Source: Actinomycetota bacterium (GTDB taxonomy: Bacteria > Actinomycetota > Actinomycetes > Mycobacteriales > Mycobacteriaceae). From it: a stretch of 5,541 nt of DNA. Below are positions 1,790 to 4,557 of the stretch, piece after piece. The notes under the pieces are model-generated. The model saw only the letters and a program-made list of their open reading frames with translations. It was not told the origin of the DNA and searched no databases. Numbering within the stretch: position 1 is the first letter of the stretch; every line of letters begins with the position of its first letter. The position numbers and the translations under genes were made by a program. The stretch lies in assembly GCA_005787665.1 (NCBI GenBank), contig SYAB01000143.1, positions 1-5,541 on the forward strand, in the 5' to 3' direction.

Positions 1790-1817
1790 TTGCGCTCAGG
1801 ATTTTCTCAGCTAGTCT
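1790..1817 (+). promoter_or_regulatory. predicted promoter with embedded 11-bp-period CTCAG direct repeat (gene at 1856)
   Basis: TTGCGC at 1790–1795 (-35-like), a 16-bp spacer and TAGTCT at 1812–1817 (-10, fits TANNNT) form a plausible housekeeping-type promoter; transcription would start near 1824, giving a leader of about 32 nt. The spacer holds two 7-bp units, GCTCAGG (1794–1800) and TCTCAGC (1805–1811), separated by 4 bp and thus 11 bp in phase, the second touching the -10 box. The same arrangement occurs before the gene at 3358. An OmpR-family response regulator dimer is a good candidate binder. The boxes are seen; function is inferred. Confidence 0.6.
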
Positions 1818-1855: not shown

Positions 1856-3052
1856 GTGCAAATCTCACTTCGTTCACATCTGATCGCGGGTACCGCCGCG
1901 GTTGTCGGGGCCAGCGCCATCGCGATGACCCCGGTCATGGGGGCTCAGCTGAGCCTCCCGGCCATCAATGTTCCCACCGTCGCCAAGGTCACGCTGGCCG
2001 GCCTCGACAGCCCCATCAGCGAGCTGCTGGGTTCGGTCCTCCTGGGCGGCCAGTTGCTGTTCAGCACCGACACGGACGTCACCAACCGTGCGCTCTGGGG
2101 CCCGACCGCTTTCCCGTTTGCCCCGACGCTGCCCAACACCACCCCCCCGTTCGACCAGACCGGAACGTCGGCTCCAGTGTTCCCGGTCGCGCTCGAATCC
2201 GATGAGCTCGGTGCTTACACCTCGATCGGCGTGCTCCCGAACTTCATCGACTTCGCGCTGCCGATCGTTCGCCAGCTGGGCATCAACGGCTCGGACTACC
2301 TCAACGTCGCCGTCGCGGGTCTGTCCGCCGCCGGTGTTGCGCTGAGCGAGGGTGTGTGGAATGCCGTGGGTGATCTGCTGACCCTGGACATCCCGGGCGC
2401 CCTGGCAACCCTGGCCGCGTCGATCAGTGACGCGGGCACCCTGGCCCTCGGCGCCGGTGCCTACGTCCTCAGCGGCGTGGTAACCCGGCTCCAGGCTGTT
2501 ATCGAAGCGACCATCGGCGCGCTGCCGCTGGCCATCGGTGCCGGCGTGGCCCAGATCAGCCTGGTGGTGAGCAAGTCCATCTCGGTCATCACCGACACGT
2601 TCGCCGCGACCTCCTTCGAAGACGGCTGGAACGCCGCCATCGACGGGCTCTTCGGTGCCACCGGCATTCCGGGAACGATCCTCAACGTCACCATCGGCGC
2701 GGGACAGCAGACCGCCGCGATTCCGTACGGCGCTCCCCCCACCTTCGAGCCGACCACGGATTCGATCGCGGCCAGCTATGTGCCGAGCGTCCGCACCGTG
2801 GCGCAGAGCGGGATCATTGCCGTTGCCAACGCGCTGGCCACCCCGGTTCCGACGGCAGTTGCTGCAGCTCCGGCTGCGTTGGCTGCGTCGGCCCGTGCGG
2901 CTGCGGCCGAGGCGGCTCCGGCTGCTGAGGCTCCGGCTGCCGACAGCTCTGAGGCGGCTCCGGCCGCTGAGGCTGCCGAGGCTCCGGCCGCTGAGGTTGC
3001 GGCCCCGAAGCCGGCCCGCAAGGCGGCTCGCGCGGTCCGTCCCTCTGCCTAA
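1856..3052 (+). CDS. exported mycobacterial protein of unknown function with Ala/Pro/Glu-rich tail
   Basis: The 398-residue product from GTG 1856 begins with a typical signal peptide: basic residue Arg6, a hydrophobic stretch at about 9–29, and a possible cleavage site after MGA at 28–30. Residues 31–55 (LPAINVPTVAKVTLAGL) open the mature protein. A long body follows, rich in Ala, Gly, Leu and Val, with amphipathic or hydrophobic stretches at about 150–240 (including VAVAGLSAAGVAL and IGALPLAIGAGVAQISLVV). These could be membrane-active helices. Residues 330–383 are a low-complexity Ala/Pro/Glu tail with repeated EAAPAAE units, ending in a basic KPARKAARAVRPSA. There is no cysteine and no catalytic motif that I recognise. 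I recall similar exported hypotheticals in non-tuberculous mycobacteria, but no characterised relative. It is not a PE or PPE protein: the N-terminal PE/PPE motifs are absent. Plausible roles are a cell-wall or outer-membrane protein. The Pro-rich tail could be O-mannosylated or bind wall polymers, which is inference. It is transcribed from its own promoter and followed by a strong hairpin. Confidence 0.88.
   Translation: MQISLRSHLIAGTAAVVGASAIAMTPVMGAQLSLPAINVPTVAKVTLAGLDSPISELLGSVLLGGQLLFSTDTDVTNRALWGPTAFPFAPTLPNTTPPFDQTGTSAPVFPVALESDELGAYTSIGVLPNFIDFALPIVRQLGINGSDYLNVAVAGLSAAGVALSEGVWNAVGDLLTLDIPGALATLAASISDAGTLALGAGAYVLSGVVTRLQAVIEATIGALPLAIGAGVAQISLVVSKSISVITDTFAATSFEDGWNAAIDGLFGATGIPGTILNVTIGAGQQTAAIPYGAPPTFEPTTDSIAASYVPSVRTVAQSGIIAVANALATPVPTAVAAAPAALAASARAAAAEAAPAAEAPAADSSEAAPAAEAAEAPAAEVAAPKPARKAARAVRPSA
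2903..3003 (+). repeat. imperfect coding repeat, Ala/Pro/Glu tail
   Basis: The unit GAGGCGGCTCCGGC occurs at 2909–2922 and 2951–2964, and GAGGCTCCGGC at 2927–2937 and 2978–2988. They encode EAAPAAE / EAPAAE blocks. Alanine switches towards GCT here while the body of the gene favours GCC and GCG, so the tail looks like a locally amplified segment. Confidence 0.75.
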
Positions 3053-3076: not shown

Positions 3077-3111
3077 CACGCTGCCCCTCCGCCCAGCGGA
3101 GGGGCAGCGTG
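3077..3111 (+). terminator. strong hairpin, probable transcription terminator
   Basis: A perfect 16-bp inverted repeat, left arm 3077–3092 (CACGCTGCCCCTCCGC) and right arm 3096–3111, with a 3-nt CCA loop, starts 24 bp after the stop codon of the upstream gene. No T-run follows (CTGTCTGG). Mycobacterial intrinsic terminators often lack a clear U-tract, so termination is likely but efficiency is uncertain. It could also protect the mRNA 3' end. Confidence 0.8.
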
Positions 3112-3310
3112 CTGTCTGGAGACCTCGTCGCTTTCGGGGGGAATTCTCAGAAACGAGCCCATGGTCGGGGATGCGCCACACCCGGCTGGGCCGGGCGGGG
3201 CGGCACCGGCACCGATCTGGCCGCGCACCGACTGAACTGTGGGTATCGGCCGGGTCCCGGCTTCGCGCCGGCAATCGGGAAAACAGGGTGACGTATTCTC
3301 GCCCATGGGG

Positions 3311-3339
3311 TAGGCACTCAGCTTTTTCTCAGGTATGGT
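3311..3339 (+). promoter_or_regulatory. predicted promoter with embedded 11-bp-period CTCAG direct repeat (gene at 3358)
   Basis: TAGGCA at 3311–3316 (weak -35), a 17-bp spacer and TATGGT at 3334–3339 (-10, fits TANNNT) predict a start near 3346 and a very short leader. The spacer contains ACTCAGC (3316–3322) and TCTCAGG (3327–3333), 11 bp in phase with a T-rich 4-bp gap, the second unit touching the -10. Over the 24 bp from first unit to end of -10 it matches the promoter at 1794–1817 at 17 positions, although the surrounding DNA is not obviously related. Confidence 0.6.
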
Positions 3340-3357: not shown

Positions 3358-4557
3358 GTGACACGCGTGCGCAGGGTGATTGGACCTATTCTGACGACGG
3401 GCGTGTCGCTGGTGACCGCCGGTGTGGTGGTCGCCAACCCGATTGTGGCGCCTCGCGCCGACGTCGCCATTCCGGCGGTGCAGCTCTCGGCCGGCAACAC
3501 TGAGACCATCGGAATGCTCGATCAGGCCTTCCTCGACGCGATCGCTCCCGGCCCGGCAGGTTCGAGCAATCCCTTCTCGGTTCTCAAGGATCTGATCTCC
3601 GGACTGGCCGCCGACGCCACCTCGATGGGTAAGGACGTCATCGTCGATGCCTTCGTGGCGGGCGTCGCCGCGGTGTCTCCACCCGAGTTGACCGCGGCGT
3701 CGAGTCCCTACGCCCCCTTCGCCGCGAGTCCGTTACCCGATTTCTCCGCGATCACCGATCCGCGCGATCTCAGCGCCCTGGTTCCTTCGATGGCCGACGT
3801 ATCCGCCGCGGCGGCGGATTCCCGCGAGTTCGTCGCCAATGACGTGGTCCCGGTGGTGCGGGAGTTCGTCACGAGCCTGGCGGCCGATGTCGAGTACGTC
3901 AGCACCGGACTCATTGAGGCTGCCTTCGCCGTCGGCGCCCTGGTGGCCCACGAGCCGATCCTCATCGCAAGGACCCTCACCGCGTTGGTCAGTGGCGACT
4001 TCGAGGGTGCGCTGGCCAACGCCGTCAAGGCGGTGGTGGCCCCGCTCGGCCCGCCGGCCATGGTCTACGACACGCTGCAGACCGTCGTCCTCAAGTACCT
4101 AGCGCCGGCGCCCCGCAACCCCGCAGCCCCGGCCTCGGCTCCGGAACCGGGCGTGCGACCCGCGCCGGTCCCGACCGCACCCGGCCCATCAGACTCAGGC
4201 CCATCAGACTCAGGCCCATCAGAATCTGGCCCGGGGGTCGCTGACGCGTCATCGCGGACCGTCCGCGACGATCGGCGCCACCGCAACCCGGTGCTCGGCT
4301 CGACGCCGGTCGGGATTGACGCTGTACGCCCGGACTCGAGCCTCGCCGGTGCCGCCCGCAAGGCCGCCGGGGCCGTCCGCGACGCGATCAGTGCGGTCGC
4401 CGAACAGGCCGCCGGACCGACTTCGGGTAGCGCGAGCGGATCAGCCGTCACCAACCCGACGGGCGCCGACAGCGCCGACGGGGAAGCCGCCCCGGCGGTC
4501 TCCGATGAGCCCGCCAAGCCCGCCGGTCGTGCCCAGGCCGCTCGCCACCGCGGCTGA
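3358..4557 (+). CDS. exported or membrane-anchored mycobacterial protein of unknown function, Pro/Ser/Ala-rich C-terminal half
   Basis: The 399-residue product starts with [10 protein letters not shown] and a hydrophobic segment at about 8–29 ([18 protein letters not shown]), a signal peptide or N-terminal anchor without a clear AxA cleavage site. The sequence [12 protein letters not shown] (35–46) follows, recalling LPAINVP...VTLAG in the protein at 1856. Residues 50–248 form the folded part, predicted mostly helical, with a hydrophobic stretch at about 183–212 and a segment [31 protein letters not shown] at 210–240. From 249 onward it is Pro/Ser/Ala-rich and probably disordered, with three GPSDS-type repeats (276–290), and it ends in basic [11 protein letters not shown]. 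No cysteine and no catalytic motif are visible. Start choice is not settled: GGAAAGG at 3349–3355 sits 2 nt from GTG 3358 and 11 nt from the in-frame GTG 3367, which would give MRRVIGP. It resembles hypotheticals I recall from non-tuberculous mycobacteria; no function is known to me. A surface or periplasmic role is inferred. Confidence 0.85.
4183..4227 (+). repeat. three tandem 15-bp units encoding [15 protein letters not shown]
   Basis: GGCCCATCAGACTCA occurs exactly twice (4183–4197, 4198–4212), then a third copy changed at two bases (GGCCCATCAGAATCT, 4213–4227). The period is five codons, so copy-number change keeps the frame. The units use TCA for serine, a rare codon in this GC-rich genome, which marks the array as a recent local duplication. 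Confidence 0.92.

What the first reader, a model, noticed from the sequence alone, without database searches (positions are those of the whole stretch)
1790..1817. Two separate exported-protein genes share one promoter design: CTCAG repeats 11 bp apart abutting the -10
At 1794–1817 and 3316–3339 the order is identical: NCTCAG, T-rich gap, TCTCAG, 1 bp, TANNNT. 17 of 24 positions match although flanking DNA and leader lengths differ, so this looks like selection rather than a simple duplication. The 7-4-7 direct-repeat layout (period 11) resembles the mycobacterial PhoP site (TCACAGC-N4-TCACAGC) and the MprA box (two 8-bp repeats, 3-bp gap) as I remember them. Each intergenic region also has one further lone CTCAG about 160–170 bp upstream (1633, 3146). 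The likely meaning is co-regulation of the pair by an OmpR-type response regulator, with the site placed to replace a weak -35 or to block polymerase.
Basis: partly seen in the sequence, partly recalled or inferred. Interest (0 to 1): 0.72.

Follow-up and report, generated by a model that had tools for sequence, protein, structure and literature searches.

The report
MprA boxes abutting exported-protein promoters
Two neighbouring genes for exported proteins in a freshwater Mycobacterium carry the same promoter switch, which matches the probable binding site of the envelope-stress regulator MprA and recurs before many members of one uncharacterised exported-protein family.

Summary
CTCAG-N6-CTCAG-N-TANNNT occurs at 1795-1817 and 3317-3339; the repeat pair occurs twice against 0.01 expected, although flanks and proteins are unrelated.

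In 198 Mycobacterium genomes the strict pattern has 107 matches, in 49 genomes, against 3 for the reversed pattern; 82 of 107 precede one BLAST-linked family of exported proteins. Starting from the proteins instead, 35 of 87 upstream regions hold the box (reverse strand 3), and 29 of those 35 have TANNNT exactly 1 bp after it.

The regulator is most likely MprA, not PhoP. Of 30 OmpR-type regulator genes examined (58 found), only the three mprA orthologues carry the box. It stands before mprA in 35 of 37 distinct upstream sequences, before pepD/htrA in 16 of 17 loci, and before sigB in three of four genomes. TCTCAG beats PhoP's TCACAG 23 to 1.

Shown: motif, distribution, spacing. Inferred: MprA binding. 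Open: activation or repression. The box lies 1 bp from the -10 here, but about 10 bp from the -10-like element at mprA and pepD.

The parts
1794..1810 (+). box A, GCTCAG-GATTT-TCTCAG, predicted MprA site of gene A
   Evidence: the same element with new flanks before 82 of 107 matches in 198 genomes
1812..1817 (+). predicted -10 element TAGTCT, 1 bp after box A
   Evidence: 29 of 35 boxes found without asking for it have TANNNT at exactly this offset; transcription start not mapped
1856..3052 (+). gene A, exported protein of 398 aa, GTG start after GGAGG; no Pfam or NCBIfam family
   Evidence: export inferred from the hydrophobic N-terminus, no signal-peptide program used
3081..3107 (+). G+C-rich hairpin between genes A and B (no T run), consistent with separate transcription
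   Evidence: sequence; a similar hairpin stands in relatives L001, L002, L083, L085, L089
3316..3332 (+). box B, ACTCAG-CTTTT-TCTCAG, predicted MprA site of gene B
3334..3339 (+). predicted -10 element TATGGT, 1 bp after box B
   Evidence: as for box A
3367..4557 (+). gene B, exported protein of 396 aa (GTG 3367; GTG 3358 is the alternative)
   Evidence: (closest database copy is 396 aa)

Best explanation
Both elements are direct-repeat operators (TCTCAG-N5-TCTCAG) of the envelope-stress response regulator MprA. They place two separately transcribed exported-protein genes in the MprA regulon, together with mprA itself, pepD/htrA, sigB and many further exported-protein genes of the genus. MprB is known to be activated by misfolded exported protein; phosphorylated MprA would then bind the two half-sites on one face of the DNA between the -10 and the usual -35 position. 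Because the box overlaps the promoter and ends 1 bp from the -10, I commit, only slightly (0.55), to repression: the cell would stop making bulk exported proteins while it raises proteases and stress sigma factors. Activation by an RNA polymerase contact fixed to the base pair is nearly as likely (0.45). Shown here: the motif, its distribution, its spacing and its presence at known MprA targets. Inferred: MprA binding and the direction of control.
For: Enrichment: 107 matches against 3 with the reversed pattern in 198 genomes; 82 of 107 before one BLAST-linked family of exported proteins. Protein-led test without the -10 in the pattern: 35 of 87 upstream regions score 10 or more of 12, reverse strand 3 of 87; 29 of the 35 have TANNNT 1 bp downstream, against 0 of 41 low-scoring best sites. 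Link to MprA: of 30 OmpR-type regulator loci examined (58 found in four genomes) only the three mprA orthologues score 11-12, the other 27 at most 9. The box stands before mprA in 35 of 37 distinct sequences and before pepD/htrA in 16 of 17 loci, 28-29 bp before the mprA reading frame counted; before sigB in G101, G007 and G012 (SigB by PDB 7pp4) and before a second HtrA-type protease. Known MprA targets: sigE and sigB (PMC4867592 section 5), its own operon and sigE (PMC8561658 passages). Identity of the regulator: gene order regulator-kinase-HtrA as in C. glutamicum cg0996-0998; L202, R203, K205 of the recognition helix fall at the residue numbers printed for MprA. C. glutamicum MprA sites at the secreted-protein gene cg0793 read AGCTAAGAAA and ATTCTAAGAA, like the CTTAG/CTAAG variants before mprA in the freshwater clade. 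For repression: cg0793 rises in the mprAB mutant and falls on mprA overexpression, one of its sites lies between -43 and -14, and MprA~P shuts the SigA promoter P1 of sigE (passages).
Against: No binding, expression or start-site data for this family. mprA is autoregulated by more than MprA (SigE acts on it too), so the box there could belong to another factor. Two mprA upstream sequences lack the box (L160 scores 8, L171 scores 5). sigE, the best-known target, has no box of 10 or more in the one genome examined (best 9). 52 of 87 family members have no box of 10 or more. Against repression: the 1-bp spacing is nearly invariant, a -35-like TTG is present in only 10-16% at the right spacing, and mprA, where MprA is known to activate, uses the same repeats though 10 bp from its -10-like element.
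Confidence: 0.75

Rival explanations
1. PhoP site: the repeats are a variant of the PhoP box TCACAGC-N4-TCACAGC and PhoP is the regulator.
For: Same 7-4-7 layout and strict spacing as the PhoP site (PMC4832192 passages and section 8). PhoP is the nearest solved relative of this MprA.
Against: Third base is T, not A: in the family-led test TCTCAG gives 23 sites of 11 or more, TCACAG 1. Regulator genes other than mprA do not carry the box. The recognition helix differs from PhoP at Val213 (Ala here) and Ser216 (Val here); Ser216 shares the water that reaches A6, the third base. That the Val explains the T is my inference.
Confidence: 0.06
2. Another direct-repeat binding protein, unknown, shares targets with MprA (mprA, pepD, sigB and the exported genes).
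For: The link to MprA is by genomic position only; 28 of 58 OmpR-type regulator genes found in the four genomes were not examined, nor were other regulator classes.
Against: mprA, pepD and sigB together are the signature of MprA in the literature seen, and C. glutamicum MprA sites have a related half-site.
Confidence: 0.13
3. MprA-independent core promoter architecture, or a spacer kept by descent among duplicated genes.
For: 82 of 107 matches belong to one linked family, so part of the sharing may be inherited; the linking used Ala-rich sequences without a low-complexity filter.
Against: Genes A and B are not detectably similar and their flanks are unrelated; the box also precedes a non-coding RNA-like element and other genes and mprA, pepD and sigB; among 67 non-redundant sites nothing but the box, T-rich flanks and the -10 is conserved.
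Confidence: 0.05
4. Chance resemblance of two short motifs.
For: CTCAG is common in this window.
Against: 0 of 200 shuffles reach two pairs; 107 against 3 in 198 genomes.
Confidence: 0.01

Closest known systems
MprA box of Mycobacterium tuberculosis (He and Zahrt 2005, paper not held; seen only in reference lists)
   Same: Direct repeats one helical turn apart; same targets mprA, pepD, sigB carry it here.
   Different: The published box letters could not be read. At the exported genes the box ends 1 bp from the -10; at mprA and pepD about 10 bp from a -10-like element.
MprA sites of Corynebacterium glutamicum (PMC12113857; passages and section 8)
   Same: Half-sites such as ATTCTAAGAA, a secreted-protein target, a site between -43 and -14.
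   Different: Reported as a loose 10-bp motif TKTTAAGAAM, not a strict TCTCAG repeat.
PhoP box TCACAGC-N4-TCACAGC (PMC4832192)
   Same: 7-4-7 direct repeat, period 11.
   Different: Third base of the half-site; different response regulator gene.
MtrA and CutR sites (PMC6265350, PMC12802291; passages)
   Same: OmpR-family regulators of envelope and secretion; MtrA is a direct repeat.
   Different: MtrA c-G-T/A-n-A-C/T-c repeat and CutR TAWATAAA do not fit.

Membership tests
MprA operator | present at the mprA promoter (autoregulation) | tested here: met
   35 of 37 distinct upstream sequences score 10 or more of 12; L160 and L171 do not
MprA operator | present at other known targets pepD and sigB | tested here: met
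   pepD/htrA 16 of 17 loci; sigB in three of the four genomes searched, not found in G003
MprA operator | present at sigE | tested here: inconclusive
   one genome read, best site 9 of 12
MprA operator | direct repeat with period 11 | tested here: met
   5-bp gap 23 sites, 4-bp gap 4, other gaps 0 or 1
MprA operator | agreement with the published M. tuberculosis box letters | not testable with these tools
   paper not held
MprA operator | bound by MprA | not testable with these tools
   needs gel shift or ChIP
PhoP box | TCACAGC half-sites | tested here: not met
   1 of 87 upstream regions at 11 or more of 12, against 23 for TCTCAG
PhoP box | two 7-bp repeats, 4-bp spacer | tested here: met

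The most novel reading that the evidence does not exclude
A separate class of response-regulator promoter: an OmpR-family dimer sits in the spacer of a SigA promoter, ending exactly 1 bp before the -10, much as MerR-type activators do, and activates without a -35. It drives a large exported-protein family and a small structured RNA across the genus.
Probability: 0.3. Interest if true: 0.75.

Novelty: new variant of a known kind. Interest (0 to 1): 0.58.

Why it matters
It would put a large, nameless family of mycobacterial exported proteins under the envelope-stress regulator MprA, whose kinase is held to sense misfolded exported protein, closing a loop between what the cell exports and the stress that export causes. 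It also gives a sharp, testable site (TCTCAG-N5-TCTCAG-N-TANNNT) with a geometry unlike that at mprA and pepD, so the effect of box position on the direction of MprA control becomes directly testable in a laboratory Mycobacterium.

Tried and rejected
PhoP as regulator: rejected on the third base and on regulator-gene promoters. MtrA and CutR motifs: do not fit. A second -10 further downstream, as at mprA: not seen among 67 non-redundant sites. A conserved -35: not seen; absence of an extended -10 TGN says nothing, since the box fixes those bases. Lone upstream CTCAG: weak. Structure of proteins A and B: models too poor for a fold search (mean pLDDT 49.4 and 32.2), none was run; no solved relative by profile (best E 0.085). 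Rfam: no match at E 0.1 or better in L012, L046, L102, L078 and the window. sigE in one genome: no strong box. Paper searches: nine; none showed this motif at this protein family, but they cover open-licence papers only and I read passages, not every hit.

Full report
Setting. The window is chromosomal DNA of a Mycobacterium close to freshwater genome bins; the three loci found in the genome collection are bins titled Actinomycetota, uncultured actinobacterium and Mycobacterium sp.. No whole genome is held for the window itself. Genes on the plus strand: end of a cysNC-like gene, an inositol-phosphatase-like gene, exported protein A (1856-3052), exported protein B (3367-4557), an Rrf2 regulator and a SLAC1-type transporter. 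A and B match no Pfam or NCBIfam family.

The observation. The two elements are as described and beyond chance: two CTCAG-N6-CTCAG pairs, 0.01 expected, 0 of 200 shuffles reach two. They agree at 17 of 24 positions while 60 bp upstream agree at 28% and 38 bp downstream at 24%. The proteins are not detectably similar (E 5.3). The lone upstream CTCAGs are not convincing.

Distribution. In the three genomes that hold the close relatives the strict pattern CTCAG-N6-CTCAG-N-TANNNT has 6 matches and the reversed control 0. In 198 genomes of the genus it has 107 matches in 49 genomes; the reversed control has 3. I fetched all 107. By BLAST linkage 82 of 107 lie before one family of proteins with a hydrophobic N-terminus; all but two of the 82 starts are 20-63 nt from the -10, the two others 189 and 210 nt. 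Reading frames were chosen by a score that favours such N-termini and the linkage used no low-complexity filter, so the family's edges are soft. Of the other 25, 13 precede a conserved non-coding stretch (below) and 12 are mixed, among them two proteins with bacterial Ig and cadherin-like domains (L006, L084; for L006).

Reverse test. A profile of 31 family proteins was run on 20 genomes that I picked, 13 with and 7 without strict matches; 17 have members. From the fetched regions 88 members were read and one dropped for a short upstream. Of 87, 35 have TCTCAG-N5-TCTCAG at 10 or more of 12 in the 250 nt upstream, reverse strand 3. The -10 was not part of this scan, yet 29 of the 35 have TANNNT at exactly 1 bp, while 0 of 41 low-scoring best sites do. 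The gap is 5 bp: 23 sites of 11 or more, against 4 for a gap of 4 and 0 or 1 for others from 0 to 11. So 52 of 87 members do not carry a good box; the wiring belongs to part of the family. Three genomes without the family (G049, G166, G005) still carry the box before mprA and pepD, so the regulon is wider than the family.

Which regulator. OmpR-type regulator genes number 58 in four genomes; 30 came with loci. Their upstream regions were scored: three mprA orthologues reach 11, 12 and 12, the other 27 at most 9 (one reaches 10 on the reverse strand). The gene is present once in 197 of 198 genomes. In 37 distinct upstream sequences, drawn mostly from the 30 best-matching loci, 35 score 10 or more and 24 are perfect; L160 scores 8 and L171 5. 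In 17 loci read through to the HtrA-type protease gene pepD, 16 score 11 or 12. In the freshwater clade the mprA box is degenerate (for instance TCTTAG-N5-TCTAAG). The looser pattern CTCAG-N6-CTCAG in four genomes gives 49 matches, reversed control 14; besides mprA and pepD it marks sigB in G101, G007 and G012 (SigB by 7pp4), a second HtrA-type protease (L288, L293) and an LmeA-like gene (L277, L290). 30 of these 49 were read, the mprA and pepD ones by their coordinates. sigE in G012 has no box above 9.

Literature seen. M. tuberculosis sigE and sigB are MprA targets (PMC4867592 section 5). MprA activates its own operon and sigE (PMC8561658 passages). MprA~P turns sigE P1 off and P2 on, and MprB is released by misfolded extracytoplasmic protein (PMC10027907 passages; PMC11173970 passages). 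espACD is thought to be regulated both ways (PMC5855569 passages). In C. glutamicum MprA is mainly a repressor; cg0793, a secreted protein, has sites AGCTAAGAAA and ATTCTAAGAA and rises 3.45 (log2) in the mutant, falling 4.15 on overexpression by the table (PMC12113857 passages and section 8; its correction read whole, does not touch this). Whether its -43 to -14 is counted from the start site was not stated in what I saw. The 2005 paper that defined the mycobacterial MprA box is not held, so the letters could not be compared.

PhoP. The layout equals PhoP's 7-4-7, but TCACAG gives 1 site of 11 or more where TCTCAG gives 23. In the aligned recognition helix PhoP N-V-V-E-S-Y is N-A-L-E-V-Y here. 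In the PhoP structure Ser216 shares the water that reaches the third base A6. That Val at this place goes with T is my inference.

How it would work. In 67 non-redundant sites there is, beyond box and -10, only T-richness between and before the half-sites and a weak A/T phase upstream; no conserved -35 and no second -10. TTG at the -35 place occurs in 10% (spacer 17) and 16% (spacer 16). The -10s are weak: 45 of 67 match TATAAT only at the three bases the pattern asks for. At mprA the repeats end about 10 bp before a conserved A-C-T-type -10 and the start codon; at pepD a looser one lies at the same distance. Two classes of placement thus exist. For repression speak overlap with polymerase, the cg0793 precedent and sigE P1; for activation speak the fixed spacing, the weak promoter and the known activation of mprA. 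I put 0.55 on repression, 0.45 on activation, given MprA.

A small RNA candidate. Thirteen strict matches precede a conserved non-coding stretch of about 90 nt with a 12-bp stem; two of 13 (L050, L078) replace a G-C by an A-U pair. Energies are below single-base shuffles (z -2.0 to -6.0). The next gene differs: an LLM-type oxidoreductase in some, an amidase-like gene in others. Four of the five sources scanned were such loci and window was the fifth; Rfam gave no match.

Verdict. Real, widespread and best read as an MprA operator with an unusual placement. The regulator is inferred from genomic evidence at about 0.75.

Noticed in passing
L012, L026, L029, L038, L046, L050, L055, L060, L073, L078, L079, L096, L102, just downstream of the box: A conserved structured non-coding stretch of about 90 nt behind the same box and -10, with a compensatory A-U pair in two of 13; no Rfam match in the four loci scanned. 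Candidate MprA-controlled small RNA.
   Followed up: partly
L277 and L290 near 1500: CTCAGAGTTCGCTCAG conserved upstream of an LmeA-like gene in G007, G012 and, by the same sequence, G101.
   Followed up: partly
L284 and L289 near 1500: A CTCAG repeat pair stands several hundred bases before a polyketide-synthase-like gene in G101 and G007.
   Followed up: no
1633-1637 and 3146-3150: Lone CTCAGs upstream of both genes; kept in close relatives but only weakly enriched.
   Followed up: partly
2921-3000: Four reverse-strand CTCAGs fall in the Ala/Pro/Glu repeat of gene A, from GCTGAG codons, and explain part of the CTCAG excess in the window.
   Followed up: no
L171 (G076): One genome with 11 family matches lacks the box at both mprA and pepD; its mprA promoter looks rewired.
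   Followed up: no
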